From Larkinella humicola (GTDB taxonomy: Bacteria; Bacteroidota; Bacteroidia; Cytophagales; Spirosomataceae), in assembly GCF_008727875.1 (NCBI RefSeq), contig NZ_VTWS01000003.1, forward strand, positions 620,001-684,000: 64,000 nt of DNA, given 5' to 3'. Of this stretch, positions 25,497 through 48,962 are shown one piece after another. The first letter of the stretch is position 1; every line of letters starts with the position of its first letter. The notes beneath the pieces were generated by a model, which was given only the letters and a program-made list of their open reading frames with translations, searched no databases and had not been told where the DNA came from. The position numbers were made by a program, and so were the translations under genes.

Positions 25497-25568
25497 AGAT
25501 GTTAGACAAGAGAGTAAAGACCGTTTTGCCGTTGTTGTCGCTTGTCTCACCTCTATCCTCTCACATCT
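25497..25568. repeat. Imperfect palindrome, GACAAGAGAGT family, copy 1
   Basis: It starts at the base after the VWA stop. AGATGT (25497-25502) pairs with ACATCT (25563-25568), and GACAAG (25505-25510) with CTTGTC (25541-25546). The string GACAAGAGAGTAAAGACC recurs with one change in the palindrome at 40318-40379. Confidence 0.6.
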
Positions 25569-25571
25569 CGT

Positions 25572-26162
25572 ATGCTACTTTCTTACTACAACGAAAACTA
25601 CATTGAAGCGGGGCTGGATGAGGTTGGGCGGGGGTGTTTGGCGGGGCCGGTGGTGGCGGCAGCGGTTATTTTGCCGAAAAACTACACCCATCCTATTCTG
25701 ACTGACTCAAAGCAACTAAGCCGTTTTCAGCGCGAGCAACTGCGGACAGAATTGCAGCGCGACGCTTTGGCCTGGGCCGTTGCGGAGGTGTCGAACGAGG
25801 AAATCGACCGGATTAACATCCTGAAAGCCAGCTTTCTGGCGATGCATCAGGCACTGGACTCGATCATGAGTCAGATTGGTGGTGTCAAACCGGATCATTT
25901 GCTGGTCGACGGCAACCGGTTTGTGAACTACCCGATGATTCCGCACACCTGCATTGTCAAAGGCGACACCAAGTTTCTGTCGATTGCGGCCGCGTCGGTG
26001 CTGGCCAAAACGTATCGGGATGAGTTGATGGAAAACCTGGCGATTGAGTTTCCGCACTACGGCTGGGAGCGGAACGTAGGTTATCCGACGCCCTACCACC
26101 GCCGGGCGATTCAGGAATTCGGGCCGTGCCGGTGGCACCGGATGAGTTTCCGGCTGGTATAG
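25572..26162 (+). CDS. rnhB: Ribonuclease HII
   Basis: A 196-residue nuclease that removes ribonucleotides embedded in DNA and RNA of RNA-DNA hybrids. Asp16 and Glu17 in GLDEVGRGCLAGPVVAAAV are the first two metal ligands; the third Asp lies in LLVDGNRF and the fourth in TYRDELM. The start at 25572 (MLLSYYNENYIEAGLDEVG) is preferred because the ten codons upstream come from the palindrome. The length is normal. It may be co-transcribed with the VWA gene across the short palindrome. Confidence 0.95.
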   Translation: MLLSYYNENYIEAGLDEVGRGCLAGPVVAAAVILPKNYTHPILTDSKQLSRFQREQLRTELQRDALAWAVAEVSNEEIDRINILKASFLAMHQALDSIMSQIGGVKPDHLLVDGNRFVNYPMIPHTCIVKGDTKFLSIAAASVLAKTYRDELMENLAIEFPHYGWERNVGYPTPYHRRAIQEFGPCRWHRMSFRLV

Positions 26163-26233
26163 AAATTCCGTCGCCGATTACAACGGTTTGTGACCCAACG
26201 GAATCCTGTCGGTATCTGCTTTTCCAACCCTTT

Positions 26234-27052
26234 ATGAAAATTCTGAACCTGCTGTTTCTGCTCCTTCTGGTAACGGCCTGTAACCGCAAGAACGACGACG
26301 CGATTCTGGCGAGAGGCTCCTCCTTTCGTTTGATTCGAACAGATTACTACGAAAATCCGGCGAATCCGGCTTCGTTTCGATCCACCCGCTACGACTACGA
26401 CGAGAACAACCTGCTCCGCGAGGTCATTTCGGCAAACACAAACGGCACGGTGGACAGCAAACAGGTTTACCGGTGGACAGACGGAAATACGCTCCGCGTG
26501 GAACAGCATTTTACCAATCCGCCCTGGTCGAGCAGCATTCAATCGGGACAACCCCTGAAAATCTATTCCTACGATGATACGGTTTTCAATCCCGACACGA
26601 CCATCCGCAAACGACAAAACTATACCCAGACTGATACAAAAACCGAGTATCGCTCCTCCACTACATTTGAGTATGCCTACGGGAATCGAATCACGCGGAA
26701 AAACACTTACACGAGCGATGGAAAGCTGGCTTCGTACACCGTATTCCAGTACGATAACCGGGGAAACGTAACGATGGAGGAGCTATATACAAACGTTTCC
26801 GATAATGCCCGGCCCAATGTCAGCACAACCTACGAATACGATACTGCGCCAAATCCCTATCGCACGGTCCGCCTGAACTCCGAGATTAGCTGGTACATGA
26901 GTCCCAACAACATTGTCCGGCAAAAGTCGATCAACCTGGTTTCGTTAATCAGCACCGACGAACAATGGAAATACGAATACCGCCCCGACGGCTATCCCGC
27001 CCGGATGATATATGCCGATGGCCGGAAAGAGGAGTTTATTTATAACGAATAG
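26234..27052 (+). CDS. Lipoprotein with YD-like repeats, function unknown
   Basis: 272 residues from ATG 26234, giving a lipoprotein signal (MKILNLLFLLLLVTAC, lipobox VTAC, Cys16). The mature part contains repeated strands of the type YDYDENNLLREVISANT, YGNRITRKNTYTSDGK, YDNRGNVTMEELYTN and YEYRPDGYPARMIYADGR. These resemble RHS/YD or DUF4595-like sheets found in many Bacteroidota lipoproteins. It is probably anchored in the periplasm or at the cell surface. It stands alone after rnhB (71-base gap) and its stop codon merges with a long palindrome shared with the convergent DUF2480 gene. Confidence 0.78.
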   Translation: MKILNLLFLLLLVTACNRKNDDAILARGSSFRLIRTDYYENPANPASFRSTRYDYDENNLLREVISANTNGTVDSKQVYRWTDGNTLRVEQHFTNPPWSSSIQSGQPLKIYSYDDTVFNPDTTIRKRQNYTQTDTKTEYRSSTTFEYAYGNRITRKNTYTSDGKLASYTVFQYDNRGNVTMEELYTNVSDNARPNVSTTYEYDTAPNPYRTVRLNSEISWYMSPNNIVRQKSINLVSLISTDEQWKYEYRPDGYPARMIYADGRKEEFIYNE

Positions 27053-27162
27053 GTTTTCAGTATACGGTTTTCTGTTTTCGGTGGCTGACGTATGACAGCT
27101 AACGCAGTTGCAAATCCGCCAGGAAGCATGCGTCAGCCACCGAGAACCGTATACTGAAAACC
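27052..27162. repeat. Long palindrome between convergent lipoprotein and DUF2480 genes
   Basis: Outer arms GGTTTTCAGTATACGG (27052-27067) and its exact complement (27147-27162), and inner arms CGGTGGCTGACG (27079-27090) and complement (27131-27142), with unequal bulges between them. It begins on the last base of the lipoprotein stop and ends eight bases before the DUF2480 stop, so it can serve as a two-way 3' end. Confidence 0.85.
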
Positions 27163-27170
27163 GTAAACCA

Positions 27171-27689
27171 TTACCCCTGCTTCGGGCGCTTGTATAGTGG
27201 CACGGTGCTGCACGGCTCGCCGAACATAATACTCTGGGCAACGGGGCGCAACCGGCGGGTGATTTCGACGTAAGCCGCGGTCGGCACCGGAACTTTGCTG
27301 CAGCCTTTCACCACCACGCGGGTGTCGCGGTAGTCTTCGATGTTGATGCGGGCAATGGCGTCGAAATAGAGTTTTTCTTCCAGATCCTGCAGCGAACCGA
27401 ACACCACGGTGTGGGCGTAGGGTTCCAGGTGAATCGTCAGGAGCATGAACGCCCAGGTCGGAACGATGGCGTCTTCGGTGCAGGTGACGGCCACATTTTT
27501 ATCAGCGTATTGGCTCCAGTCGTGGGTTTTCAGGAATTCACGGAAATCTTTCTCCTTGAGAATCAGCCCCATAAACAGGTTGCCCTTCAAGTCGTAGACA
27601 ATCCGCTCGCCGGGGTGGTAATAATCTTCCAAATCCAGGGATACCAGGCCGCTTTTGGCGACCCGATTGACAATCAGTTCCGTTTCCAT
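27171..27689 (-). CDS. DUF2480 family protein
   Basis: A 172-residue cytoplasmic protein without signal or membrane segment. The start METELIVNRVAKSGLVSLDL and the middle WSQYADKNVAVTCTEDAIVP and AVKGCSKVPVP-like stretch (VVVKGCSKVPVPTAAYVEIT) match my memory of DUF2480, a small family confined to Bacteroidota. No biochemical function is known to me. It begins five bases after the tsaB stop, so it is the last gene of the rpmH-to-DUF2480 run. Confidence 0.72.
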   Translation of the reverse strand: METELIVNRVAKSGLVSLDLEDYYHPGERIVYDLKGNLFMGLILKEKDFREFLKTHDWSQYADKNVAVTCTEDAIVPTWAFMLLTIHLEPYAHTVVFGSLQDLEEKLYFDAIARINIEDYRDTRVVVKGCSKVPVPTAAYVEITRRLRPVAQSIMFGEPCSTVPLYKRPKQG

Positions 27690-27694
27690 ACCCG

Positions 27695-28387
27695 CTAAAC
27701 AACCAGCTTCTTCGGCTTGGTTCCCACAAAATCTTTTAAGTAGTAGGGCTCAAAATCAGCGACACGTTCAAACCGGCCTTCCCGATACGCCAGAGCGGCC
27801 AGTTGGCCCACCGTTCGGGCCGAGGGATGAATGAGCTGTTCGGTAAAAATCGCATTCGGTTGATGCGCCAAAACCGCCCGGCATTTGGCCGCACCATTCC
27901 CGAAAAACACGACGGGCTGTTGCGCCAGTAAGTCCGCGAACGATTGTTCATCAATGATTTGCGCTGAGGTCGGCACCTTTTCACGGCCTTCCGAATCATA
28001 AACCGCACAGTAGACTTCCATCCGCCGGGCATCGAGCAACGGGCAAAGGGCGTAAGACGCAGGATAAAAACCGTTCACCTGCCACGCCATCGCTTCGAGC
28101 GTGTTGATCGCCAGCAGCGGTTTATCGAGCGCAAAACACAGCCCTTTGGCCGTCGAAACGCCAATCCGCAAACCGGTGTAGGACCCCGGCCCTTTGGCCA
28201 CGGTGACTGCGTCCAGTTCAGAAAGCTGGTGTCCACTCTGATGAACCACATTCTGAATCAGCGTCGTCAACATGCCCGACGATGATTTTTCGGTAAACAA
28301 TTCGAAACAGGCCAAAACCGCTCCGTCGCGATGAAGGGCTACCGAACAGACGGTGGTAGAGGTATCGAGGGAGAGAATAAGAGACAT
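27695..28387 (-). CDS. tsaB: tRNA threonylcarbamoyladenosine biosynthesis protein TsaB
   Basis: 230 residues. A partner of TsaD in the t6A37 modification of tRNAs reading ANN codons. The ASKHA fold shows LILSLDTSTTVCSVALHRDG at the N-terminus and VAKGPGSYTGLRIGVSTAKG at about 70-90, the TsaB hallmark. The ATG at 28387 is selected because an upstream in-frame start would add 19 residues (MNLCASPFIVHRSSFIIHF) translated from the palindrome between this gene and the S41 protease. It lies between the S41 gene and DUF2480 on the same strand. Confidence 0.93.
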   Translation of the reverse strand: MSLILSLDTSTTVCSVALHRDGAVLACFELFTEKSSSGMLTTLIQNVVHQSGHQLSELDAVTVAKGPGSYTGLRIGVSTAKGLCFALDKPLLAINTLEAMAWQVNGFYPASYALCPLLDARRMEVYCAVYDSEGREKVPTSAQIIDEQSFADLLAQQPVVFFGNGAAKCRAVLAHQPNAIFTEQLIHPSARTVGQLAALAYREGRFERVADFEPYYLKDFVGTKPKKLVV

Positions 28388-28393
28388 GAAATG

Positions 28394-28469
28394 AATGATG
28401 AACGATGAACGATGAACGATGAATGGGCTGGCGCACAAATTCATCGTTCATCGTTCATCATTCATCATT
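28394..28469. repeat. Palindrome built of GATGAAC/GATGAAT heptamers
   Basis: Arms 28394-28424 and 28439-28469 (31 bp, one mismatch), each a tandem of the heptamer ATGAACG and relatives, separated by 14 bases. It starts six bases after the S41 stop (28476) and ends seven bases before the tsaB ATG on the minus strand. The same TTCATC unit is found inside the 5-formyl-THF cyclo-ligase gene at about 43567-43597. Confidence 0.85.
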
Positions 28470-28475
28470 AAAAAA

Positions 28476-30131
28476 TTAAGGTTTTCCTTTCAAAATAGAC
28501 TGATACCGGTTCATGTCTTTGAACAGGTCGAGGGCGGCTTTGACTTCCGGATCGGTCGCGAACGAAACTTCTTTCATGCCTTTCTGGAGGTAATAATGCC
28601 CGACAATTTCCTGTTCCAGCAACGTTTTCAGTTCGCTTTTGAACGTCACCAGATCGACATCCTTGCTGTGCGACAGTTTCGTACGCAACGCTTTTAGCTG
28701 ATCCTGAATCTGATCGAACGATTTTTCTTTCTTGGCCGAGGCTTCGAGCGTTCCCAGTTCTTTTTCAACCTGCGTGGTGTAATCGTATTCCTTGTCTTTC
28801 AGCCATGTCACAAAATTCTGGTATTCGGCGTCAGTCAGGCTGAACTCACGCGCGGGCTTGATGGTCGGGTGGTCGTGCCGGTATTTGATGGCGTAATCGA
28901 AAATCAACCCCTTGTTGGTCAGGCTAATCGCGATCGGGGCGGGAGTTATCGGTTCGACCAGCACATCCGGCGTAACGCCACCACCGTCGTAAACCGGGCG
29001 ACCGGCTTTGGTTTTGAAGGCGGTTTTCAGCGAATCCGGAATCTTGCCCACGCTGCCGTCCGGGTTGCGGTGGCTGTAGTCGATGGCCTGAATGCAGCGA
29101 CCACTCGGAATGTAGTATTTGGCCGTGGTAATTTTCAGCTTGGTGTTGTACGACAGTTCGCGGGTGGTTTGCACCAGCCCTTTTCCGTAGGTCAGTTGCC
29201 CTACCAGAACGCCCCGGTCGTAGTCCTGAATAACGCCCGAAACGATTTCGGCCGCCGAAGCACTCCGGCTGTTGGTCAGCACGACGATCGGAATTTCCAG
29301 ATCCAGGGGCGGGTTCAAAGCCGTGTAGGTTTTGTTCCATTCGGTTACTTTGCCTTTGGTCGTCACAATTTCCGATTCGCGCGGCAACCAGATGTTGGCG
29401 ATATCGATGGCCATATTGAGCAAACCGCCCGGATTTTCGCGTACATCCAGCACCAGTTTTTTCATGCCCTTGCCTTTGAGTTCGACAAACGCATTCCGCA
29501 CCTCACGCGATGCCGTACCGGTAAAGTCTTTCAGATCGATGTAGCCTACGTCGCTCGAAATCATGCCGGAATACGGCACGTTGGTCATTTTGACCACATC
29601 GCGCGTCACATTCAGATCAATGGGGTCTTTGGCTCCAAAGCGTTTCACCGTCAGTTTAACCGCCGTATTGGTTTGCCCCCGGAGCAGTTTGTCAGAATCC
29701 AGTTCGCGCCGGGCTTTGATGTCCACACCGTCGACCTTGAGAATCTCATCGCCAATCTGCAAACCGGATTTCTCGGCGGGTGTGCCTTCATAAATCATCA
29801 TCACGATGCTGCGTCCCTGCCGCGAGCCAATGAGCGCCCCGATGCCATTGTAGCGTCCGGTGGTCATCGTCATGTAATCCTCGATTTCGTCTTCGGCGAA
29901 GAAGTTGGTATACGGGTCGAGCGATTTCAGCATGGCGTCGATGCTGTTCTTCACCATCCGGTTCGGATTCAGTTCGTCGACGTAATACAGATTCAGCTCT
30001 TTGAACAGCGTCGCGTAAATGTCCAGGTTGCGGGCAATTTCAAAAAACCGGTCGTCGTTGCGGAACGAATAAAAACCCAGGCTTCCTGCCAGAAGGGTCG
30101 CTCCCAGGGCGACAGTCAGACGTTTGCGCAT
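28476..30131 (-). CDS. S41 family C-terminal processing protease with PDZ domain
   Basis: A 551-residue envelope protease of the CtpA/Prc group. An N-terminal signal or anchor (about 5-22, TVALGATLLAGSLGFYSF) is followed by a helical region, a PDZ domain (about 90-170: YEGTPAEKSGLQIGDEILKV) and the S41 core. The core has the catalytic Ser in LTNSRSASAAEIVSG and the Lys in LVGQLTYGKGLVQT, the normal Ser/Lys dyad. Acidic and coiled-coil C-terminal residues extend to the end. It follows rnpA after 117 bases that include a palindrome. Its role in this phylum is likely the trimming of envelope proteins; the substrate is unknown. Confidence 0.93.
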   Translation of the reverse strand: MRKRLTVALGATLLAGSLGFYSFRNDDRFFEIARNLDIYATLFKELNLYYVDELNPNRMVKNSIDAMLKSLDPYTNFFAEDEIEDYMTMTTGRYNGIGALIGSRQGRSIVMMIYEGTPAEKSGLQIGDEILKVDGVDIKARRELDSDKLLRGQTNTAVKLTVKRFGAKDPIDLNVTRDVVKMTNVPYSGMISSDVGYIDLKDFTGTASREVRNAFVELKGKGMKKLVLDVRENPGGLLNMAIDIANIWLPRESEIVTTKGKVTEWNKTYTALNPPLDLEIPIVVLTNSRSASAAEIVSGVIQDYDRGVLVGQLTYGKGLVQTTRELSYNTKLKITTAKYYIPSGRCIQAIDYSHRNPDGSVGKIPDSLKTAFKTKAGRPVYDGGGVTPDVLVEPITPAPIAISLTNKGLIFDYAIKYRHDHPTIKPAREFSLTDAEYQNFVTWLKDKEYDYTTQVEKELGTLEASAKKEKSFDQIQDQLKALRTKLSHSKDVDLVTFKSELKTLLEQEIVGHYYLQKGMKEVSFATDPEVKAALDLFKDMNRYQSILKGKP

Positions 30132-30177
30132 ATCTTTAAGGAAAATGAGTTGTTTCTCAGAGCTAATCAGAGAAAAT

Positions 30178-30231
30178 CAGGGTTTATCAGAGAAAACTTT
30201 GATTACCTCTGGTTTTCTCTGATAAACTCTG
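30178..30231. repeat. Palindrome, TTTATCAGAGAAAA type
   Basis: Arms 30178-30197 and 30212-30231 (20 bp, one mismatch), loop 14. The unit ATCAGAGAAAA also occurs once more just upstream (30167-30178). It starts 17 bases after the rnpA stop and lies before the S41 start. Confidence 0.8.
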
Positions 30232-30248
30232 TGAAATAGCTTTTTTAC

Positions 30249-30644: not shown

Positions 30645-30648
30645 AATG

Positions 30649-30726
30649 CGTTTAAGGTTTAATGTTTAACGTTTAAGGCTGCTTCTTGCGCAGAAACGTT
30701 AAACCTTAAACTTCAAACCTTAAACG
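30649..30726. repeat. Palindrome between rpmH and rnpA, TTTAAGGTTTAA type
   Basis: CGTTTAAGGTTT (30649-30660) pairs with AAACCTTAAACG (30715-30726), and GTTTAACGTTT (30664-30674) with AAACGTTAAAC (30694-30704). It starts one base after the rpmH stop and ends four bases before the rnpA ATG, occupying the whole gap. Confidence 0.85.
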
Positions 30727-30727
30727 A

Positions 30728-30895
30728 TTAGATTTTAAACCGATCGCCTTTTTTCTCGTCCGAAACCGTCAGTTTATGACGTCCTTTTGCGCGACGGGCG
30801 GCCAGTACTCTGCGGCCATTGGCTGATGCCATGCGCTCGCGGAAGCCGTGCTTGTTCCGGCGCTTACGGTTCGAAGGTTGAAACGTTCTTTTCAT
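30728..30895 (-). CDS. rpmH: 50S ribosomal protein L34
   Basis: 55 residues beginning [20 protein letters not shown] and continuing with [20 protein letters not shown], an unmistakable L34; the C-terminal extension [15 protein letters not shown] is seen in Bacteroidota. A strong promoter precedes it. It heads the minus-strand run rpmH, rnpA, S41, tsaB, DUF2480. dnaA is not adjacent, unlike in many other phyla. Confidence 0.98.
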
Positions 30896-30936
30896 GACTA
30901 ACTATATCTTGGATGCCTATTTTTCAAATGAGTCTG

Positions 30937-30967
30937 CAAAGGTAGAGAATGTTACGGAACGAAACAA
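30937..30967 (-). promoter_or_regulatory. Promoter of rpmH
   Basis: On the minus strand TTG (30967-30965), 20 bases, then TACCTTTG (30944-30937): a perfect match to the Bacteroidota -7 element with correct spacing. The transcription start would be near 30930, giving a leader of about 35 bases. Confidence 0.75.
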
Positions 30968-31019
30968 GTTTGATTTTCACATTTAGCGTTTTCACAAACA
31001 AGCGGTTATATTCGCAGGT

Positions 31020-32483: not shown

Positions 32484-32542
32484 TCGGGTTGGAAGACGGG
32501 TAAAAGTCAATCGTAAAGACACCTGTTATTTTTTCTTTTTCC

Positions 32543-36628: not shown

Positions 36629-36744
36629 CTGTCAATAGTCAAAAGGTTATCCACAACTGGTAGCTCCGGCGGAGCGGGCTAAAAACAACTTCAGGCCGCT
36701 CCGCCGGAGCTACCAGTTGTGGATAACCTTTTGACTATTGACAG
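36629..36744. repeat. 49-bp-arm palindrome carrying two consensus DnaA boxes
   Basis: Arms 36629-36677 and 36696-36744 are exact complements with an 18-base loop. The consensus DnaA box TTATCCACA occurs once in each arm (36647-36655 on plus, 36726-36718 on minus). The arm also contains GCTCCGGCGGAGC, itself a small palindrome. Further partial complementarity (CCGGAGGCC against GGGCTTCCGG) extends it to about 36614-36767. It lies between the convergent uvrB and prfA genes. Confidence 0.9.
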
Positions 36745-37941: not shown

Positions 37942-37967
37942 TGTTCAGAAACTTTATGCCTAACTTA

Positions 37968-38040
37968 CCCCTAAATCCCCGGAAGGGGACTTGGACACGA
38001 AATAATCCATGTGCAAAAGTCCCCTTCAGGGGATTTAGGA
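37968..38040. repeat. CCCCTAAATCCCC interspersed element, copy 2
   Basis: The left arm at 37968-37992 (CCCCTAAATCCCCGGAAGGG and on to GACTT) and a right arm ending near 38040 are complementary apart from one or two bases. The loop GGACACGAAATAATCCATGT follows the family pattern GGACAC-ATCC-AAAAGT. It is located in the divergent promoter region of prfA and the 38167 gene. Confidence 0.88.
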
Positions 38041-38166
38041 GTATTTTGATACAAATCTACGAAAATTCGGTCAGTCAACGCTTCGGTCGTACATTTGTCA
38101 ACGAAACGGCCAACCCCATCGTTATCCTGATTGATGACACGAATTCACCACACTAAGTTCCTGGCA

Positions 38167-38757
38167 ATGAACCGCATCTTTTCTCCATTCCTTTTTCTGA
38201 TTTGTCCGGCCTTTTTTCTCTTTTTCGCATCCGCCTGCAACCCCGAACGGAACCAGAATACGAAGGCGCTGGTGCAGGAGATGAACGACAACAAGATCAA
38301 GCGGGTCACCAATGTCCAACTGACCACCACCGTTGACGAGTGGGGCAAAGCCCTCGTTCTGACTACCCGAAAAGTGCTAATCCGTGAGCTGACCAAAAAG
38401 CCCGGAGACTCCACCTTTTGCAACCTGAAAAATGTACCGGCTATTCGGCGGTTGGAAAAACAATACGCTATTACGATCGATTTGCTGAAGGCGAAGGACG
38501 TGACCAACCCGGCCCTGAACCCCAAAGAGCGGGATTTGCTGGGAGCGTATGTCTATAACGCTCAGAATAAACTGGAGCAGAACGATAACGTCCAGAAACT
38601 GAACGACACGCTTTTTGTCTACAATTCACCCGTTGCGACGGATGATATCATCTGCAAAACCTGCACCGACAATGCGGCTTTGCCGTTCGTGATCTGGCGA
38701 ATCGTGTTCAACAAACGGGAAGTGATCCGGCGGATTAATCCGAAAAAATTGAAGTAA
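38167..38757 (+). CDS. DUF3365 (Tll0287-like) lipoprotein
   Basis: 196 residues from ATG 38167. A lipoprotein signal (FLFLICPAFFLFFASAC, lipobox ASAC) is followed by a helical domain (KALVQEMNDNKIKRVTNVQL, IRRLEKQYAITIDLLKAKDV, NPKERDLLGAYVYNAQNKLE). The segment with ATDDIICKTCTDNAALPFVI agrees with the DUF3365/Tll0287-like periplasmic sensor fold. The Cys-x-x-Cys is not followed by His, so haem binding as in some relatives is not supported. The protein is probably membrane-anchored. There are no obvious operon partners. Confidence 0.7.
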   Translation: MNRIFSPFLFLICPAFFLFFASACNPERNQNTKALVQEMNDNKIKRVTNVQLTTTVDEWGKALVLTTRKVLIRELTKKPGDSTFCNLKNVPAIRRLEKQYAITIDLLKAKDVTNPALNPKERDLLGAYVYNAQNKLEQNDNVQKLNDTLFVYNSPVATDDIICKTCTDNAALPFVIWRIVFNKREVIRRINPKKLK

Positions 38758-38758
38758 T

Positions 38759-38845
38759 CCTGACAGCGGTCTGAAGACCCTGTCAGCGGTTGATCTGGCT
38801 AATAGATTTTTCAACCGCTGACAGGGTCTTCAGACCGCTGTCAGG
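38759..38845. repeat. Perfect 35-bp palindrome, CCCTGWCRGCGGTT family, copy 1
   Basis: Arms 38759-38793 and 38811-38845 are exact complements with a 17-base loop. Each arm itself contains CCTGACAGCGGT and a second, nearly repeated CCCTGTCAGCGG, giving a nested structure. It begins one base after the DUF3365 stop. Part of the arm (TGAAGACCCTGTCAGCGGTT) is close to the palindrome at 45960-46082. Confidence 0.92.
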
Positions 38846-38953
38846 GTTACACAGAATAGTATGAAAATACGATTGAATAGTACGACACAAACAATGATTT
38901 TGTACTTTTAACACATTCGTATTCCATCCCTTAACAAACATACTGTTTCACGT

Positions 38954-40303
38954 ATGAGCAATCTGAAAAACAAAGCCGATCAGGCGGTGAGCCGACGCGG
39001 GTTTGTCAAAGCCTCGTCGCTCGCTCTGGCTGGCGTAACCATTCTGCCCCGGCACGTGCTGGGTGGTAAAGGCTTCATCGCGCCGTCTGATAAACTGAAC
39101 GTCGCCGGGGTCGGCATCGGCGGCATGGGAAAAAGCAACCTCAACGCCCTGGCGCCCACCGAAAACATCGTCGCGCTTTGCGATGTTGATGAGAAATACG
39201 CCGGCCCGGTTTTCGAAAAATACCCGAACGCCAAGCGGTACAAAGACTACCGCAAGATGCTCGAAGCCCAGAAGGACATCGACGGCATCGTGGTAGCAAC
39301 GCCCGATCACCTGCACGGCATCATTGCGTCAGCCGCCATGAAACTCGGCAAGCACGTTTACGTGCAAAAACCGCTGACCGTTACGGTGTGGGAATCGCGC
39401 GAACTGGCGCGGCTGGCGAAAGAAAATCCGAAAGTCGTTACCCAAATGGGAAATCAGGGCCACTCGAACGACGATGCCCGGCTGATCAACGAATGGATTG
39501 CCGACGGCGCCATTGGCAAAGTACAGGAAGTCCACGTCTGGACTAACCGCCCCATCTGGCCACAAGGCATGGAGGTACCGAAGGAAGCCGTCGACGCACC
39601 GTCAACGCTGGACTGGGAGTTGTTTTTAGGCCCCGCTCCGCACCGGGCCTACAATCCGGCGTATACCCCGTTCAAATGGCGCGGCTGGGTCGACTACGGT
39701 GCCGGGGCGCTGGGCGATATGGGCGCTCACCTGGTCGATCACCCGTTCTGGGCGCTGGGGCTCAACCCACCGATCACCGTCGAGGCTTCCTCGACGCCGT
39801 TTAACAAGCAAAGCTACCCGGTTTCGTCGCTGGTGACTTTCGAGTTTGAAACCAAAGACAAGAAAAATCCGCTGACGATGACGTGGTACGACGGCGGTAT
39901 TCTGCCACCCAAACCGATCGAATTCGGCGACGGCCCCGTTCCGAAAGGTGGTGGCGTTTTGTATGTCGGAACGAAAGGAAAACTCTTTCATGAGACATAC
40001 GGCTCCAAACCGCGGCTACTGCCGCAGGAAAAAATGGATTCCTACAAAAAACCGGCGCAGACGATTCCTCGCGTGGGCATGAGTCACGAACGCAACTGGG
40101 CGGAAGCCTGTAAAGGAAACGGCAAGGCGGTTTCTCCCTTCGAATATGCCGGTCCGTTGTGCGAAACCATGCTGCTGGGCATCGTGGCGCTCTACAAACA
40201 GGGCACCAAACTGAACTGGGATACGAAAACCATGGCCTTCACCAACGCCCCGGAATTGAACCCCTACCTGAAACGCGAATACCGCCCGGGCTGGGCGATG
40301 TAA
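38954..40303 (+). CDS. Gfo/Idh/MocA family oxidoreductase with Tat signal (1)
   Basis: 449 residues. The Tat signal [20 protein letters not shown] is followed by a Rossmann fold ([20 protein letters not shown]) and the family's catalytic region with [20 protein letters not shown], then [20 protein letters not shown]. The EKP motif is present as QKP. The long form (about 430-450 residues) with WFGPA/LGPAP-type loops ([20 protein letters not shown]) is the group common in Bacteroidota and Planctomycetota. Likely role: NAD(P)-dependent oxidation or reduction of a sugar or cyclitol, exported to the periplasm with its cofactor. It precedes the DUF1080 gene on the same strand. Confidence 0.92.
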
Positions 40304-40317: not shown

Positions 40318-40379
40318 AGAGCAGAGACAAGAGAGTAGAGACCTGAAAACCCGCGTCTTTCTTCTCTTGTCTCTGCTCT
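40318..40379. repeat. Palindrome, GACAAGAGAGT family, copy 2
   Basis: Arms 40318-40342 and 40355-40379 (25 bp, a few mismatches in the inner part), loop 12. It shares GACAAGAGAGTAGAGACC with the element at 25497. It begins 14 bases after the Gfo/Idh/MocA stop and ends 19 bases before the DUF1080 ATG. Confidence 0.82.
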
Positions 40380-43231: not shown

Positions 43232-43234
43232 GCA

Positions 43235-43812
<578 letters not shown>

Positions 43813-43813
<1 letters not shown>

Positions 43814-43899
43814 TAGGAACGCTGATCTGACGGATGGAACGGATTAAAACCGATTTTATCCGTGAAAATCCGTTCCATCCGTCAAATCTGTGTTCCTAT
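43813..43899. repeat. Palindrome, GGAACACAGAT family, copy 2
   Basis: Arms 43813-43845 and 43867-43899 (33 bp, three mismatches), loop 21. The first base is the last base of the cyclo-ligase stop. The string CGGATTAAAACCGATTTTAT and the flank GGAACACAGAT link it to the copy at 8868-8939. It ends 16 bases before the next ATG. Confidence 0.88.
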
Positions 43900-43915
43900 T
43901 TCGTAGATTGCCGCA

Positions 43916-45007
43916 ATGAAAATCCTCGTTTTCTGGTGTTGTATGCTTCATACGGTTTTGGCTCAAAAGCTCCCGGCGGCTCTCGATTCGGTGATGCACC
44001 GCCACTTTTCGATCGACCAGCCCGGTGGCGCCCTGCTGGTGGTGATCGATGGAAAAACCGTCTACAACCGGGGTGTTGGCCTGGCGAATCTGGAGACCAA
44101 AGCACTGATTTCGCCGGAAACCAATTTTCGGATGGCGTCGGTTTCCAAACAGTTTACGGCGATGTGTATTCTGCTGCTGGAAAAACAGAAAAAGCTTTCC
44201 TTAGACGATAATCTGCTTAAATTCTTCCCGGACTTCAACCAGAAAGTGGGCAAAAGTATCAAACTACGTTACTTATTGACGCACACTTCCGGGATTCTGG
44301 ATTACGAATCACTTCTGTCGTCCGGTCGAAAGGAGCCGGTTTTTGATACGGAAGTGTTGACGCTGCTGAAGTCGCGGGACTCGACATATTTCGAACCGGG
44401 GAGCCGGTTTCGCTACAGCAATTCGGCCTTCTGTTTGCTTACCCAAGTCGTGGAGCGGGTCACGAAAAAACCGTATCTGGCGTTCATTACCGAAAACCTT
44501 TTCAAACCGCTGGGCATGAGGCAGACCACGCTCTATGAACCAACGCGGATGATTCCCAACCGGGCGATGGGCTATGCCCGGAATCAGGACCAAACCGTCC
44601 GGTTTTCGGACCAGAGCGTGACGAGCGGAACCAAAGGCGACGGCTGTGTTTACACTTCCCTGGCGGACTATAAAAAGTGGGACAACGCGCTGACAACCGG
44701 CCAACTGGTCGATGTCGTGGAAAAACTCAAAACCGTCCAACATCCGATTGAAGGACAGCCAAACGGTTTTTACGGGTTGGGCTGGTTTTTCACCCAAACA
44801 AACGGCGAAGCATCGGAGTTTTTTCATTCCGGCAGTACATGCGGTTTTAGCAACTGCGTCGTTCGCATTCCGCAGAAAAAGACATTGGTTGTTCTGTTTT
44901 CAAATCTGGCCGACAATCACCGGCCTTTTGCCGACGTTTTAAACGTGCTAGAAGCAGACACGGAAAGCTCTATTGACGTTTGGGCATTGCACAATCTGAC
45001 GAATTGA
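43916..45007 (+). CDS. Secreted serine hydrolase, class C beta-lactamase fold
   Basis: 363 residues with a short signal peptide (about 1-16, ending TVLAQ). Active-site motifs are complete: Ser75-x-x-Lys78 in RMASVSKQFTAM, the Tyr-x-Asn in FRYSNSAFCLLTQ, and His-x-Gly in EFFHSGSTCGFSN replacing KTG, as in esterases and DD-peptidases of family S12. It could be a D-amino peptidase, esterase or PBP-like protein; a true beta-lactamase is less likely. It stands alone between a palindrome and the inositol oxygenase promoter. Confidence 0.9.
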   Translation: MKILVFWCCMLHTVLAQKLPAALDSVMHRHFSIDQPGGALLVVIDGKTVYNRGVGLANLETKALISPETNFRMASVSKQFTAMCILLLEKQKKLSLDDNLLKFFPDFNQKVGKSIKLRYLLTHTSGILDYESLLSSGRKEPVFDTEVLTLLKSRDSTYFEPGSRFRYSNSAFCLLTQVVERVTKKPYLAFITENLFKPLGMRQTTLYEPTRMIPNRAMGYARNQDQTVRFSDQSVTSGTKGDGCVYTSLADYKKWDNALTTGQLVDVVEKLKTVQHPIEGQPNGFYGLGWFFTQTNGEASEFFHSGSTCGFSNCVVRIPQKKTLVVLFSNLADNHRPFADVLNVLEADTESSIDVWALHNLTN

Positions 45008-45033
45008 CTGGCTATTTCGGGTAAGCGATAGAC

Positions 45034-45063
45034 TTGAAATAGTTGGGGGAATGATTATCTTTA
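45034..45063 (+). promoter_or_regulatory. Candidate promoter of the inositol oxygenase gene
   Basis: TTG at 45034-45036 and TATCTTTA at 45056-45063, 19 bases apart; one mismatch to TAnnTTTG. The start would be near 45070, about 28 bases before the ATG. Confidence 0.5.
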
Positions 45064-45097
45064 CACCATTAATTGGCTTATTAACAGCTACCTTACT

Positions 45098-45961
45098 ATG
45101 GCATTCACCGACACCGAACGCAACCCCCTCTCCAGCCTGGAACAATGGGAAGATGATCTGCTGATCCGCTACCCCGAACCCGAACACAAGGCCAAGGAAG
45201 AATACCGCAATTATGATGACCCCGCCCGCGATACCGTCCGGGAGTTTTACCGCCTGAATCACACCTACCAGACGTACGATTTTGTGCAGGAAAAACGGGC
45301 TGAATTCCTCAAATTCGACAAAAAAGAAATCCCGGTTTGGGGCGCGATGGAGTTTCTGAACACCCTCGTCGATGATTCCGATCCGGATATTGAACTCGAC
45401 CAGTTGCAACATTTGCTGCAAACCGCCGAAGCCATCCGCGCCGATGGTCACCCCGACTGGTTTGTGCTGACCGGTTTTCTGCACGACATGGGCAAAGTCC
45501 TGTGTCTGTTCGGTGAACCGCAATGGGCGGTTGTTGGCGACACGTTCCCGGTGGGCTGTGCGCATTCCGACAAGATCGTTTATCCCGAGTATTTTTCGGC
45601 CAATCCGGATACGTATAACAAGGATTTCAACACCAAATACGGGGTTTACGAACCGAATTGCGGTCTGAAAAACGTCACGATGTCGTGGGGTCACGACGAA
45701 TATTTGTACCACATTACGAAAGATCACCTGCCCGAACCGGCCCTGTACATGATCCGGTATCACTCGTTCTACGCGCAACACCGCGAAAAAGCGTATGATC
45801 ACCTGATGGACGATCACGACCGGGCGATGTTCAAGTGGGTCGATAAATTCAATCCGTACGATTTGTATTCGAAAAGCCCGGTAACGCCGGTCGTTTCAGA
45901 ACTGAAACCGTATTACGAAGACCTGATCGCGAAGTATTTGCCTGCGACGATTCGGTTGTAA
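45098..45961 (+). CDS. myo-Inositol oxygenase (MIOX), eukaryote-like
   Basis: 287 residues. A diiron oxygenase that opens myo-inositol to D-glucuronate with O2. The HD-domain core is clear: [20 protein letters not shown] (metal His and Asp), [60 protein letters not shown] and [16 protein letters not shown], ending in the C-terminal [11 protein letters not shown] typical of animal and plant enzymes. The length agrees. Downstream, beyond a palindrome and a terminator, lies an SSS symporter that might import the substrate. No glucuronate isomerase is present in the window. Confidence 0.96.
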
Positions 45962-46082
45962 CCCCGTCAGCGCCGGGCCGTCGATACGGTTGAAAACCCT
46001 GACGGCGGTTATAAAGCCAGATTTAAAAACAAACCGCCGTCAGGGTTTTCAACCGTATCGACGGCCCGGCGCTGACGGGGTT
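45960..46082. repeat. Perfect 51-bp palindrome, CCCTGWCRGCGGTT family, copy 2
   Basis: Arms 45960-46010 and 46032-46082 are exact complements with a 21-base loop, the longest perfect arms in the window. It starts on the last two bases of the inositol oxygenase stop. TGAAAACCCTGACGGCGGTT in each arm resembles TGAAGACCCTGTCAGCGGTT of the palindrome at 38759. Confidence 0.93.
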
Positions 46083-46086
46083 ACAC

Positions 46087-46118
46087 AAAAAACCGATGTT
46101 TCCGACATCGGTTTTTTT
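46087..46118 (+). terminator. Intrinsic terminator after inositol oxygenase
   Basis: AACCGATGT (46091-46099) pairs with ACATCGGTT (46105-46113), loop 5, followed by seven T, with an A-run on the other side that makes it usable in both directions. It follows the 51-bp palindrome by a few bases. Confidence 0.88.
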
Positions 46119-46151
46119 GTTTATTTTGGTGACGACAAGCCTACTCGCCGG

Positions 46152-47600
46152 ATGCTCCTCACTTTCATTGCGCTTTACCTCCTCTCCAACCTCGCCATCG
46201 GTGCCTGGGCGGCCCGAAAAGTAACCAGTAGTCAGGATTTTGTGCTGGCTGGTCGGCGGCTCCCGCTGGCGCTGGCGGCTTCAGCCACGTTTGCCACCTG
46301 GTTTGGCTCGGAAACGATCATGGGCGCGCCGGCGATGTTTGTCGATGGCGGTTTTCTGGCCGTTATCGAAGAACCGTTCGGGTCGGCCTTGTGCCTGTTT
46401 CTGGTTGGGGCCTTTTACGCCCGACCGCTGTATCGGCTGGGAATCACCACGTTTTCGGATTATTTCAGCATCCGCTTTGGCCGTTCGGCGGAGTTTCTGT
46501 CGGCAGCACTGGTCATTCCGTCGTATTTTAGCTGGATTTCCGCCCAGTTCATCGCCATCGGGATTGTCCTTAATCTGGTCACGGGTGTGCCTATTTTCTG
46601 GTGCATTGCCTCCAGCGCAACCATCGTGATGATCTACACGATGATGGGCGGCATGTGGTCGCTTTCCATCACCGATTTCCTCCACAACATCATCATCGTC
46701 ATTGCGTTGATCATCATTGCCGTTATTCTGTATAATCAGACCGACGGGATAGCCAGCATCGTCCAGAAAACCAAGCCCGGTTTTTTCCATTTCCTGCCCA
46801 AACCGACGTTCAAAGACAGCGTCGGCTGGGTGGCCGCCTGGATCACCATCGGCCTGGGTTCCATTCCGCAACAGGACGTTTTCCAGCGCGTGATGTCGGC
46901 CAAAAACGAGCGGACCACGGTCCGGGCTTCCTATCTGGCCTCGCTTCTGTACATCACCATTGCCATGCTGCCCCTGTTTATTGGGCTGGTGGGAAAGCAG
47001 CTACACCCGGATTTGAACCTGGACAACCAGATGCTGATTCCGAACATGGTGTTGCGACAAGCCAGCATGCCGCTGCAAATTCTCTTTTTCGGGGCCTTGT
47101 TATCGGCCATTCTCAGCGTATCGAGTGGGGCGATTCTGGCACCGGCCACGGTTTTTGGCGAGAATATCTACCGGTTTTTCCGGCCCGACATCAGCGACAA
47201 AACGCTGCTGCGTACCATCCGGCTGGCGGTGGCGGTGATCACCCTGATTTGCGTCTGGATGACCGCAGCCCGCGACGTCAACATTTTCGAACTGGTTGGC
47301 GAGTCGTCGGCGTTTAGTCTGGTATCGTTATTCGTGCCGCTCACAGCCGGTTTATACTGGAAACCGGCCAACACGCTGGGCTGTCTGTTGTCGATGGTGG
47401 GCGGAATCGTTGTCTGGCTAACCTGTCTGGCCATTGAAACGGAATATCCGGCCCTGGTCTATGGTTTACTGGCCAGTATAGCAGGCATGGTTCTGGGGGT
47501 GATGATTGCCCCTAAATCCCCTGAAGGGGACATGGACGCAGCTTATCCAGATCTAAAAGTCCCCTTCAGGGGATTTAGGGGCAATCAAAAAAACGCCTGA
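46152..47600 (+). CDS. Sodium:solute symporter (SSS) family with repeat-derived C-terminus
   Basis: 482 residues from ATG 46152 (MLLTFIALYLLSNLAIGAWA); the frame is open further upstream only through the terminator and palindrome. About 13 hydrophobic helices are visible, with SSS signatures FATWFGSETIMGAPAMFVDG near the start and GSIPQQDVFQRVMSAKNERT in the middle. It probably imports an organic solute with Na+. The gene neighbourhood suggests inositol or a uronate (inference). The final 30 residues (APKSPEGDMDAAYPDLKV and on) are encoded by the interspersed element at 47504-47586 and have no counterpart in the family. It converges with and slightly overlaps the Nudix gene. Confidence 0.92.
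   Translation: MLLTFIALYLLSNLAIGAWAARKVTSSQDFVLAGRRLPLALAASATFATWFGSETIMGAPAMFVDGGFLAVIEEPFGSALCLFLVGAFYARPLYRLGITTFSDYFSIRFGRSAEFLSAALVIPSYFSWISAQFIAIGIVLNLVTGVPIFWCIASSATIVMIYTMMGGMWSLSITDFLHNIIIVIALIIIAVILYNQTDGIASIVQKTKPGFFHFLPKPTFKDSVGWVAAWITIGLGSIPQQDVFQRVMSAKNERTTVRASYLASLLYITIAMLPLFIGLVGKQLHPDLNLDNQMLIPNMVLRQASMPLQILFFGALLSAILSVSSGAILAPATVFGENIYRFFRPDISDKTLLRTIRLAVAVITLICVWMTAARDVNIFELVGESSAFSLVSLFVPLTAGLYWKPANTLGCLLSMVGGIVVWLTCLAIETEYPALVYGLLASIAGMVLGVMIAPKSPEGDMDAAYPDLKVPFRGFRGNQKNA
47504..47586. repeat. CCCCTAAATCCCC interspersed element, copy 3, inside two gene ends
   Basis: Arms 47504-47531 and 47559-47586 are exact 28-bp complements; the loop ATGGACGCAGCTTATCCAGA fits the family pattern. 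Unlike the other copies it lies between convergent genes, covering the last 27 or so codons of the symporter and touching the Nudix stop (47585-47587). Confidence 0.92.
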
Positions 47601-48037
47601 TCGATTTTTCCGATGTATTCCAAATTGGTCTGCGACGTCAGCCAGCGCTGAATCTGCCGCCCGACATTCGGATACAGATTCAAATCGTCCAATTCGCCAA
47701 CCGGCTTCCAGCTAACGGCCAGTGCTGTGGTTTCTTCCGGGTTGATGCGGGGAATACCGCCAATCAGTTGGCTCACAAATACCACGTGCAACACATCCTC
47801 TTTGGTTTCCGACCCGTGGGTCGGGGGGAAAATCACTTCGCCAACAAACGCGATGGGCCCGACTTCGACATCAATGCCCAATTCTTCCTGCAACTCGCGC
47901 ATCACCGTCAGATCCAGGGTTTCGCCCCGGTCGGGATTGCCGCCGGGCAGGGCATACACGTCCGTGTCACCATACCGGTAATGCATCAACAACAAATGAT
48001 TATTCTCGATCAGGAGCACCGCAGGCCGTACTTTCAT
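47585..48037 (-). CDS. Nudix hydrolase
   Basis: 150 residues. The Nudix box is complete: GGNPDRGETLDLTVMRELQE then ELGI (G-x5-E-x7-R-E-x2-E-E-x-G). It cleaves a nucleoside diphosphate linked to some group; the substrate cannot be predicted. N-terminal VRPAVLLIENNHLLLMHYRY and C-terminal ETTALAVSWKPVGELDDLN are typical of small ADP-ribose or NTP pyrophosphohydrolases. It is divergent from the ThuA gene. Confidence 0.93.
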   Translation of the reverse strand: MKVRPAVLLIENNHLLLMHYRYGDTDVYALPGGNPDRGETLDLTVMRELQEELGIDVEVGPIAFVGEVIFPPTHGSETKEDVLHVVFVSQLIGGIPRINPEETTALAVSWKPVGELDDLNLYPNVGRQIQRWLTSQTNLEYIGKIDQAFF

Positions 48038-48088
48038 AACTCAGGAAGAAATTGATGGAACATGAACAGTAAAGTACAACAAAACCGA

Positions 48089-48096
48089 TACTTTTG
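48089..48096 (+). promoter_or_regulatory. Candidate -7 element of the ThuA gene
   Basis: TACTTTTG is a perfect TAnnTTTG, 24 bases before the ATG. No TTG lies at the expected -33 distance, so only the -7 part is supported. Confidence 0.45.
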
Positions 48097-48119
48097 ACAC
48101 TGTAATTTAACCTTGTGTA

Positions 48120-48848
48120 ATGAAAACGATTGTAAAGTTCCTCAGCATTCTGTGTGTATTGACCGGTCTGGCAACTACGACCGCAAACGCCAAAGATGCG
48201 ATTCTGGTTTTTTCGAAAACCGCAGGCTTCCGGCACAAGTCCATCGAAGTGGGTAAAATGAGTATTGTGAAGTTGGGGCAGGAAAACGGTTTCAGCGTCG
48301 ATACGACCGAAAATGCGGCTCTTTTTACACCCGAAAACCTGAAAAAATACAAGGCCGTCGTTTTTCTGAGCACAACCGGCGATATTCTGAACGCTGAACA
48401 ACAGGCGGCTTTTGAGCAATATATCAAAAAAGGGGGCGGTTTTGTCGGAATTCACGCGGCAGCCGACACCGAATACGAATGGCCGTGGTACAACCAATTG
48501 GTGGGGGCTTACTTCCTGAGCCACCCCAAACAACAGAACGCCGAAATCGAAATCGTGGATAAAAAACACCTTTCAACCAAAGCGCTGCCCGACCGCTGGA
48601 AACGCTACGACGAGTGGTACAACTACAAAAGCATTGTGCCAGGCCTGAAAATTCTGGGAAAACTGGATGAGAAAACCTACGAAGGTGGCAAAAACGGTGA
48701 CAATCACCCGTTCATCTGGTACCGTGAATTCGACGGTGGCCGGTCGTTCTACACCGGCGGGGGCCACACGGACGAATCCTACAGCGACGCCCAATTCCTG
48801 ACGCACATCCTGGGGGGGATTAAGTACGCGATGGGAAAGAAAAAGTAA
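48120..48848 (+). CDS. ThuA-domain secreted protein
   Basis: 242 residues with a signal peptide (to about GLATTTANA). The ThuA fold, related to class I glutamine amidotransferases, shows ILVFSKTAGFRHKSIEVGK, YKAVVFLSTTGDILNAEQQA, GGGFVGIHAAADTEYEWPWY and SFYTGGGHTDESYSDAQF. ThuA acts with the oxidoreductase ThuB in trehalose/maltitol use through 3-keto sugars in rhizobia, and related proteins accompany DUF1080 and Gfo/Idh/MocA genes. Here it converges with a Tat Gfo/Idh/MocA gene across a palindrome, and another Gfo/DUF1080 pair is 8 kb upstream. Confidence 0.9.
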   Translation: MKTIVKFLSILCVLTGLATTTANAKDAILVFSKTAGFRHKSIEVGKMSIVKLGQENGFSVDTTENAALFTPENLKKYKAVVFLSTTGDILNAEQQAAFEQYIKKGGGFVGIHAAADTEYEWPWYNQLVGAYFLSHPKQQNAEIEIVDKKHLSTKALPDRWKRYDEWYNYKSIVPGLKILGKLDEKTYEGGKNGDNHPFIWYREFDGGRSFYTGGGHTDESYSDAQFLTHILGGIKYAMGKKK

Positions 48849-48861
48849 AAAGAGATTTATT

Positions 48862-48956
48862 GTTTCGCGGAGTTGAGCGGAGAAAAAAGGGAGTTAAGCA
48901 GAGAAAATAATTAACTCCGCTTAACTCCCTTTTTTCTCCGCTCAACTCCGCGAAAC
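48862..48956. repeat. Perfect 38-bp palindrome between convergent ThuA and oxidoreductase genes
   Basis: Arms 48862-48899 and 48919-48956 are exact complements with a 19-base loop. Short motifs GGAGTTGAGCGGAG and GGGAGTTAAGC recur in the arm. It lies 13 bases after the ThuA stop and six bases after the oppositely oriented Gfo/Idh/MocA stop, so it can end both transcripts. Confidence 0.92.
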
Positions 48957-48962
48957 AACTCC

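What the first reader, a model, noticed from the sequence alone, without database searches (positions are those of the whole stretch)
25497..48956. Long palindromes placed directly at stop codons throughout the window
At least eleven long inverted repeats lie within 0-20 bases of a stop codon: 8868 (gcvT), 25497 (VWA), 27052 (lipoprotein/DUF2480), 28394 (S41), 30178 (rnpA), 30649 (rpmH), 38759 (DUF3365), 40318 (Gfo), 43813 (cyclo-ligase), 45960 (MIOX), 48862 (ThuA/Gfo). Three share bases with the stop codon itself. Arms are 16-51 bp and several are perfect, but sequences differ, so selection or copying acts on each palindrome as a whole. Few have a T-run, so most are not classical terminators. 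I infer a 3'-end system for mRNA protection, or insertion of several palindromic elements with preference for gene ends.
Basis: seen in the sequence. Interest (0 to 1): 0.72.

Follow-up and report, generated by a model that had tools for sequence, protein, structure and literature searches.

The report
Self-rewriting DNA hairpins at gene ends
In this bacterial lineage, long DNA hairpins built from degenerate seven-letter words sit against stop codons; sister species rewrite both arms together and sometimes flip the loop, which points to copying errors during DNA replication rather than to ordinary terminators.

Summary
The window is from a Larkinella genome. In 864 kb I found 124 long inverted repeats (none in shuffles), densest between convergent genes and beside stop codons; a further 400 kb agreed (59). 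Two populations are mixed. Word hairpins, often degenerate heptads (autocorrelation peaks at lags 7, 14, 21), lie a median 4-6 nt from a stop codon. Dispersed CCCC- and GAGCGG-type palindromes are less tied to stops; the CCCC-type are missing from one sister at all 8 junctions compared. In sister species word hairpins are rewritten on both arms together (51 compensated against 9 broken double changes, though 117 changes are one-sided), families swap, and at 8 of 26 usable sites the loop is inverted. Joint arm change plus loop inversion is the published signature of polymerase template switching. Sense-strand G.U and A.C mismatches are equal (163 to 159), T-runs are few and REP tags are at chance, which argues against terminators, RNA-level selection and REPs. 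At the S41/tsaB junction a hairpin persists in 15 of 16 Spirosoma-group and 8 of 9 Larkinella genomes with unrelated stems, so selection for some hairpin is not excluded. The ingredients are known; I found no report of the combination.

The parts
8868..8939 (.). word hairpin of the CGGATT type, arms 24 (23 paired), loop 24; 4 nt from the gcvT stop
   Evidence: in sister G004 arms 29 (28 paired), loop 4; in G006 the two genes overlap by 4 nt
25497..25571 (.). degenerate AGACAAGAG-type hairpin after the VWA gene
   Evidence: no ungapped arm >=10 in the window; hairpins in G007, G005, G001, and a TTGACGA-heptad one in G008
27052..27169 (.). CRGTWTW heptad hairpin with GGCTGACG module between convergent stops; shares the last base of the stop
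   Evidence: absent in G001 and G002 (gap 0 bp) and G007 (7 bp); loop inverted G005 vs G008
28394..28469 (.). ATGAACG heptad hairpin in the S41/tsaB-like gap, 6 nt from the S41 stop
   Evidence: loop inverted against G007; hairpin in 15 of 16 Spirosoma-group species with unrelated stems
30143..30246 (.). TCAGAG 10-mer hairpin between rnpA stop and S41 start
   Evidence: stem words differ among sisters (AGACAAGAG-like in G004, G002; GCGGAG in G003, G005, G008)
30649..30726 (.). GTTTAAN heptad hairpin in the rnpA/rpmH gap, 1 nt from the rpmH stop (30728-30730)
   Evidence: my gene caller missed rpmH
38754..38850 (.). CTGTCAG-type hairpin overlapping the DUF3365 stop, arms 40 (39 paired)
   Evidence: G004 differs by a 3-nt block mirrored in both arms
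40318..40379 (.). AGACAAGAG-type hairpin, 14 nt from the stop of 38954-40303
43813..43899 (.). CGGATT-type hairpin starting at the last base of the stop codon
   Evidence: G007 and G003 carry a GC-rich insert in the right arm only (by eye)
45957..46085 (.). 54-bp perfect arms, loop 21, overlapping the MIOX stop
   Evidence: G004 looks like a deletion derivative between two GTCAG copies (my reading)
46087..46117 (+). short intrinsic-terminator-like hairpin with T-run just after the MIOX palindrome
   Evidence: also picked up in G007, G004 and G001, recognisable by eye in G005 and G002
48860..48958 (.). GCGGAG 10-mer hairpin between convergent stops, arms 44 (43 paired)
   Evidence: rewritten in G007, G002, G001
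6256..6334 (.). dispersed CCCC-type palindrome (second population)
   Evidence: absent in G006
36629..36744 (.). dispersed GAGCGG-type palindrome, 49-bp perfect arms (second population); also present, shorter, in G007
37966..38043 (.). dispersed CCCC-type palindrome in a divergent gap (second population)
47503..47587 (.). dispersed CCCC-type palindrome inside the 3' end of predicted gene 46152-47600 (second population)
52647..52719 (.). dispersed CCCC-type palindrome in a divergent gap (second population)

Best explanation
The stop-adjacent palindromes are word hairpins: short degenerate repeat arrays, mostly of seven bases, paired with their own inverted copy. Shown: the period of seven, the stop-codon anchoring, joint change of both arms, inverted loops between sisters, and swaps of word family at the same site. 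Inferred: arrays arise by seven-base slippage at gene ends. They are doubled and kept self-complementary when DNA polymerase switches template between the arms: one arm is copied onto the other, and in the intermolecular form the loop is left inverted. Because only self-complementarity is restored, the sequence is free to drift and to be replaced. Genes tolerate this just after the stop codon, and many words themselves contain stop codons. At some junctions selection may in addition keep some hairpin in place. A separate population of dispersed palindromes is overlaid on this; its CCCC-type members look like recently inserted miniature elements.
For: Arms autocorrelate at lags 7, 14 and 21 (z 13.5, 11.7, 10.3; no other lag from 2 to 21 exceeds 2.0; 113 arms). 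Intergenic period-7 segments: 55, of which 47 have an inverted partner, against 0-9 for periods 5, 6 and 8-11. Between G000 and G007: 700 pairs unchanged, 51 changed on both sides and still paired, 9 changed on both sides and broken, 117 changed on one side (32 repeats used). At junction 7 there are four compensated changes per arm, an identical 19-nt loop and 2 changes in 56 flank bases. At junction 243 a 16-nt GC-rich block is present in both arms of G000 and in neither of G007. Loop orientation: of 36 orthologous comparisons clear enough to call, 11 are inverted, at 8 of 26 sites, exact at three; loops from different sites are alike in 34 of 5466 comparisons. Sense-strand G.U 163, A.C 159. 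PMC8604942 (abstract and passages) states that template switching homogenises arms and, when intermolecular, inverts spacers.
Against: One-sided changes (117) outnumber compensated ones (51). Template switching does not explain the period of seven, words shared across the phylum, or swaps between unrelated word families. Word hairpins are more stop-adjacent than the dispersed elements, so tolerance alone is not enough. At S41/tsaB a hairpin persists across genera, which suggests selection. The G.U test has a weak positive control (63 terminators, G.U 20 to A.C 12), and many of its repeats are orthologues of one another. SbcD is present in all 30 genomes tested, so its loss does not explain why these genera carry palindromes. 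Of 201 same-site repeat pairs only 36 could be called for loop orientation. Two of the eight inversion sites (c13:8, c13:15) lie in a series of paralogous genes whose hairpins share sequence, two (c13:8, c13:78) are in CCCC-type elements, and c13:178 is weak (0.86 against 0.64). Loop orientation could be mis-assembled where arms exceed the assembly k-mer.
Confidence: 0.6

Rival explanations
1. The hairpins work as RNA: intercistronic or 3'-end stems that protect or separate mRNAs (as REPs do in some operons, from recall), and compensatory selection keeps the arms paired.
For: Stop-adjacent place; a hairpin persists at S41/tsaB in 15 of 16 Spirosoma-group loci and 8 of 9 Larkinella genomes with unrelated stems, while 16 of 20 Dyadobacter loci have a 28-39 nt gap there and none shows a word hairpin (by eye); hairpins sit inside likely operons such as rpmH-rnpA.
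Against: Sense-strand G.U mismatches are no commoner than A.C (163 to 159; words only 93 to 94); loops invert, which compensatory selection does not predict; at MIOX and at junction 96 a separate terminator-like hairpin lies beside it.
Confidence: 0.22
2. The word hairpins are mobile palindromes (REP or MITE) moved by a RAYT or IS200-like transposase.
For: Families recur at many loci with similar stems; Y1 transposase genes exist in all 9 Larkinella genomes; the CCCC-type elements do look like insertions, absent in G007 at 8 of 8 junctions compared; some word hairpins too are seen in only one of G000 and G007.
Against: REP tags are not enriched at 138 hairpin feet (GTAG 5, 7.0 expected; CGTC 0, 0.7 expected); no word hairpin was found in the central stretch of the 28 Y1 loci examined; word hairpins are often shared between sisters and rewritten in place.
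Confidence: 0.08
3. The loop inversions come from site-specific recombination or from assembly errors, and only the arm covariation is real.
For: Bacteroidota are rich in invertible segments (recall); arms of 24-44 nt at most flipped sites could confuse a short k-mer assembly.
Against: The flipped loops are 10-26 nt, short for a site-specific invertase (recall); c13:129 has arms of only 17 nt in G000 and 25 nt in G004; the same genomes show direct loops in 25 of 36 comparisons.
Confidence: 0.1

Closest known systems
Quasipalindrome template-switch mutagenesis (PMC8604942 abstract and passages; PMC7202029 and PMC3820800 only the start of the abstract in a search listing)
   Same: arm homogenisation and spacer inversion
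   Different: in PMC8604942 ten spacer inversions in yeast coding genes, spacers of a few bp; here long intergenic hairpins, with loops of 10-26 nt inverted between bacterial species
P6b stem-loop of the Nostoc trnL intron (PMC4476775 abstract and section 18; PMC3488679 passages)
   Same: degenerate heptanucleotide repeats that pair into a hairpin; repeat class replaced repeatedly at the same site
   Different: one intron stem in cyanobacteria; here many gene ends in Bacteroidota, no intron
Heptamer arrays: GGGNATC type in Xanthomonas and Nostoc (PMC4692102 passages), TAACTGA in Beggiatoaceae, cyanobacteria and five Bacteroidetes (PMC4679880 abstract, outline and passages)
   Same: seven-base unit, intergenic, some inverted pairs (70 and 75 in two Xanthomonas), stop codons in all frames for TAACTGA
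   Different: direct arrays of one word; TAACTGA mostly sits before start codons; here many degenerate words, paired, after stop codons
REP elements (PMC3733652 passages)
   Same: extragenic palindromes, often downstream of genes
   Different: no GTAG or CGTC tag enrichment, most stems 20-58 bp instead of 5-13, no word hairpin at the Y1 genes
Gene-end inverted repeats of E. coli (PMC6060812 passages)
   Same: inverted repeats enriched just after stop codons
   Different: those have spacers up to 8 bp and are mostly parts of intrinsic terminators; these rarely have a T-run
Coding palindromes of Nematomorpha mitochondria (PMC6649704 start of abstract and passages)
   Same: long perfect inverted repeats; template switching proposed for concerted arms
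   Different: inside coding genes of animal mitochondria

Membership tests
Template-switch (quasipalindrome) product | arms change together | tested here: met
   51 compensated vs 9 broken double changes, with 117 one-sided changes
Template-switch (quasipalindrome) product | spacer inversion between relatives | tested here: met
   11 of 36 callable comparisons, 8 of 26 sites; caveats on paralogues and assembly in the text
Template-switch (quasipalindrome) product | mutation seen to arise in culture | not testable with these tools
   needs resequenced lines
Nostoc P6b heptad hairpin | period of seven, degenerate | tested here: met
   not met by every family (CGGATT and GCGGAG types run at 9-10)
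Nostoc P6b heptad hairpin | repeat class replaced at an orthologous site | tested here: met
Nostoc P6b heptad hairpin | lies in a group I intron | tested here: not met
   gene-end gaps; no intron family among the Rfam matches of window 25000-55000
Intrinsic terminator | T-run after the stem on the sense strand | tested here: not met
   8 of 70
REP/RAYT system | GTAG or CGTC tag at the foot | tested here: not met
   5 and 0 of 138 feet, at or below chance
REP/RAYT system | transposase flanked by the repeat | tested here: not met
   28 Y1 loci, no word hairpin in the central 1.3 kb or so
MITE (for the CCCC-type population) | insertion against an empty site | tested here: met
   8 of 8 junctions empty in G007; GAGCGG-type ones are shared with G007
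MITE (for the CCCC-type population) | target-site duplication and parent transposase | tested here: inconclusive
   no consistent duplication seen by eye; transposase not sought
Inverton | recombinase-mediated flip of a promoter-sized segment | not tested
   flipped loops are 10-26 nt; no recombinase search made

The most novel reading that the evidence does not exclude
A dedicated, unidentified machinery writes hairpins after stop codons: it adds seven-base words at gene ends, folds the array back to make the second arm, and keeps rewriting and flipping it, so that cells conserve the presence of a gene-end hairpin but not its sequence.
Probability: 0.12. Interest if true: 0.85.

Novelty: new variant of a known kind. 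Interest (0 to 1): 0.62.

Why it matters
If right, one genome carries many natural records of template switching: 183 long inverted repeats in 1.264 Mb read, which extrapolates to about a thousand in 7.86 Mb, not all of them word hairpins. That makes a mutational process otherwise studied in reporter genes measurable across species: arm copying, loop flipping and word replacement can be placed on a tree. It also warns that arm-to-arm covariation, usually read as proof of functional RNA structure, can come from DNA copying. The open question why seven-base repeats are so common in some bacteria gains a dense test case.

Tried and rejected
Stop-codon insurance: hairpin arms do not carry stops in all three frames more often than dinucleotide shuffles (16 of 113 against 12.9, sd 3.1).

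Loss of the palindrome nuclease SbcCD: SbcD is present in all 30 genomes tested, palindrome-rich and palindrome-poor; SbcC was not searched.

Rfam: the gathering search gave 0 matches for the window, but it also missed the tRNA-Leu that ARAGORN finds at 54304-54388, so it is weak evidence. The permissive search of 25000-55000 gave 17 matches: 16 to unrelated microRNA models below their cut-offs, and the tRNA.

Plasmid BLAST with two hairpins: one weak hit (74.7 percent, Bacteroides finegoldii plasmid) and none.

Vocabulary shared across the phylum: a GAGTKAW array occurs in 26 of 296 Bacteroidota genomes, 18 of 140 genera, but the reversed control pattern also occurs in 14 genomes (my count of the listing), so word specificity is modest. 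In the loci fetched from the other genomes (one or two each) the arrays are single: no inverted pair of 14 nt or more of the word was found. The upstream neighbour gene is on the same strand in 18 of 22, and in 14 of 22 its stop is within 30 nt (left out: 2 rows of the own genome, 2 inside ORFs, 1 with no neighbour).

I first read the G004 MIOX gap as a one-arm intermediate of arm copying; it fits better as a deletion derivative and is not used as evidence.

Word families are hand-made patterns written after looking; 18 of 124 repeats fell in no family, and the patterns misplace some (48860 and a few other GCGGAG or TCAGAG hairpins). The mixed remainder of 26 repeats (those 18 plus two small families) is stop-adjacent in 15 of 24 and was left out of the Fisher test.
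Full report
What was checked. The window is G000:C14:620001-684000 of a 7.86 Mb genome in 20 contigs. Named sisters with a 97-99 percent identical S41 protein are Larkinella sp. C7, L. punicea and L. terrae; nine genomes of the genus are held. I called genes with a simple coding model (53 in the window, rpmH and some small ORFs missed) and scanned 864 kb (the window, C11:1-400k, C13:200-600k) for ungapped inverted repeats with arms of at least 15 nt, score (matches minus two per mismatch) of at least 18, and loops up to 60 nt.

Is it real? Yes. There are 124 such repeats against none in three order-2 Markov shuffles of each sequence. By class: 40 in convergent gaps (2.46 per kb), 68 tandem (1.15), 12 divergent (0.40), 4 coding (0.005). 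With a stricter coding rule tandem becomes 70; of these, 46 lie within 20 nt of the stop against 25.9 expected for uniform placement (14 lie within 20 nt of the start), and the mean position is 0.25 of the free space from the stop. A held-out 400 kb (C13:600-1000k) gave 59 more, with 3.29 per kb convergent, 0.31 divergent, none coding, and 30 of 36 tandem ones nearer the stop. Together this is 183 in 1.264 Mb. The counts include ordinary terminators with long arms.

Two populations. Hand-made word classes split the 124. Word hairpins (54 heptad, 15 of 9-10-mers) lie within 20 nt of a stop in 51 of 64 measurable cases, median 6 and 4 nt. Dispersed CCCC-, GAGCGG- and CCAGGCGTGCC-type palindromes (29) do so in 7 of 22, median 34.5 nt (Fisher p = 1e-4); 5 lie in divergent gaps and 2 in coding sequence. 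The other 26 do so in 15 of 24. The CCCC-type elements are absent in G007 at 8 of 8 conserved junctions where G000 has one, although G004 shares some; GAGCGG-type ones at two C13 junctions and at window 36629 are shared with G007.

Anatomy. Arms repeat with a period of seven: lag-7, -14 and -21 identities are 0.42, 0.39 and 0.40 against 0.28 in shuffles (z 13.5, 11.7, 10.3; 113 arms), and no other lag from 2 to 21 exceeds z 2.0. Of 55 intergenic period-7 segments 47 have an inverted partner; periods 5, 6 and 8-11 give 0-9 segments. Typical words are GARTKAW, CRGTWTW, AATGNNA and AGACAAG; a GCTGRCGC module occurs in 21 of 124 repeats. In several cases the gene's own stop codon is in register inside the array (by eye). 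Other genera, from one 13-22 kb locus per genome: lag-7 identity is also raised in the Spirosoma/Fibrisoma/Fibrella/Rudanella group (0.40; 142 repeats per Mb) and the Larkinella sisters (0.43; 116 per Mb), while repeats are rare in Dyadobacter (17 per Mb) and Runella/Emticicia/Siphonobacter (27), and intermediate in Hymenobacteraceae (77).

Sister species. At the same junction hairpins are kept, rewritten, swapped or lost. Some gaps that hold a hairpin here are tight elsewhere: 27052 is 0 bp in G001 and G002, 28394 is 2 bp in G006, and 8868 is a 4-nt overlap in G006. Of 245 conserved G000/G007 junctions 32 have a repeat in both, 23 only in G000 and 11 only in G007. Base-pair fates: 47 G000 repeats were examined, 15 with more than a quarter of pairs gapped were dropped, and in the other 32 there were 700 pairs unchanged, 51 changed on both sides and still paired, 9 changed on both sides and broken, 117 changed on one side, 24 gapped; flanks differ at 319 of 3354 sites and loops at 90 of 492 (6 repeats below score 18 and 3 in gaps over 420 nt were also left out). 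Junction 7 has four compensated changes, an unchanged 19-nt loop and 2 changes in 56 flank bases. Junction 243 shows a 16-nt GC-rich block in both arms of G000 and in neither of G007. Junctions 183 and 239 swap word family.

Loops flip. At orthologous sites (nine species in the window region, up to four on C13) there were 201 repeat pairs; 122 were set aside for loop length, 39 had unlike loops, 4 were alike but ambiguous, and 36 could be called: 25 direct and 11 inverted; 8 of 26 sites show an inversion. Exact reverse complements occur at c13:15, c13:84 and c13:129; near-exact ones at window 27052 (G005 against G008) and 28394 (G000 against G007). Loops from different sites are alike in only 34 of 5466 comparisons. 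Caveats: c13:8 and c13:15 lie in a series of paralogous genes whose hairpins resemble each other; c13:8 and c13:78 are CCCC-type elements; c13:178 is weak; long arms could mislead a short-k assembly, but c13:129 has arms of 17-36 nt.

Mechanism. Arm homogenisation with spacer inversion is what PMC8604942 (abstract and passages) describes for template switching, spacer inversion needing the intermolecular form. An RNA-level cause predicts that G.U mismatches are tolerated on the transcribed strand and A.C are not; I found 163 against 159 in 196 tandem repeats of Larkinella (many of them orthologues of one another), 93 against 94 in the words, 39 against 38 in the Spirosoma group. The control on 63 canonical terminators gave 20 against 12, too few to prove the test's power. 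So DNA-level copying is best supported. Slippage as the source of the words is inferred; PMC4692102 (passages) reports polymerase slippage as a hypothesis for heptamer excess.

Against a purely neutral reading. At the S41/tsaB junction 15 of 16 Spirosoma-group loci (of 17 loci given, one had no such gap) and 8 of 9 Larkinella carry a hairpin with many unrelated stems, whereas the next junction has 4 of 17 in the Spirosoma group. Two more loci read split: a Cytophagaceae MAG (L057) has one, Arsenicibacter (L054) only a 9-nt stem. In 16 of 20 Dyadobacter loci that gap is 28-39 nt, and I see no word hairpin in any of the 20. The hairpin is therefore probably a derived insertion into a likely operon that has been kept while its sequence turned over. 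Selection for having some hairpin there is plausible and untested.

What is known. Inverted repeats after stop codons are known in E. coli, mostly as terminators (PMC6060812 passages). Degenerate heptads pairing into a hairpin with class replacement are known from the Nostoc trnL intron (PMC4476775 abstract and section 18; PMC3488679 passages). Heptamer arrays are known from Xanthomonas, Nostoc, Beggiatoaceae and some Bacteroidetes (PMC4692102 and PMC4679880). I found no report of stop-anchored, rewriting, flipping heptad hairpins in Bacteroidota in ten searches of the held open-access library; subscription papers are mostly not held. Hence: new variant of a known kind.

Noticed in passing
window 11111-11775: Two small ORFs that look like a HigB/HigA-type toxin-antitoxin pair (by eye and recall); in sister G007 the same gap begins with sequence that looks like a nucleotidyltransferase ORF (by eye).
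   Followed up: partly
window 54304-54388: tRNA-Leu (cag) found by ARAGORN and by the permissive Rfam search but missed by the Rfam gathering search.
   Followed up: yes
window 43813-43899; sisters G007 and G003: A GC-rich insert with a core like CGGCGACCCGGC sits in one hairpin arm only in two sisters; related inserts (CGACGGCCCGGC-like) occur in 5 of 124 repeats. It may be a further tiny dispersed element.
   Followed up: partly
window 47503-47587: A CCCC-type palindrome lies inside the 3' end of predicted gene 46152-47600 and touches the 3' end of the convergent gene, so it may have altered a protein C-terminus.
   Followed up: no
G000:C13 about 210-245 kb (my junctions 7-15 and the hairpin at C13 about 243.5 kb): A run of genes ending in similar CTTCGTTCGGA-like sequence, each followed by GARTKAW hairpins, some with shared loops: a likely place for gene conversion.
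   Followed up: partly
L175-L202: Some Larkinella Y1 transposase loci carry their own hairpins (for example GTCGCGTAGCGAC, CCCGTGTGCCG) unrelated to the word hairpins.
   Followed up: partly
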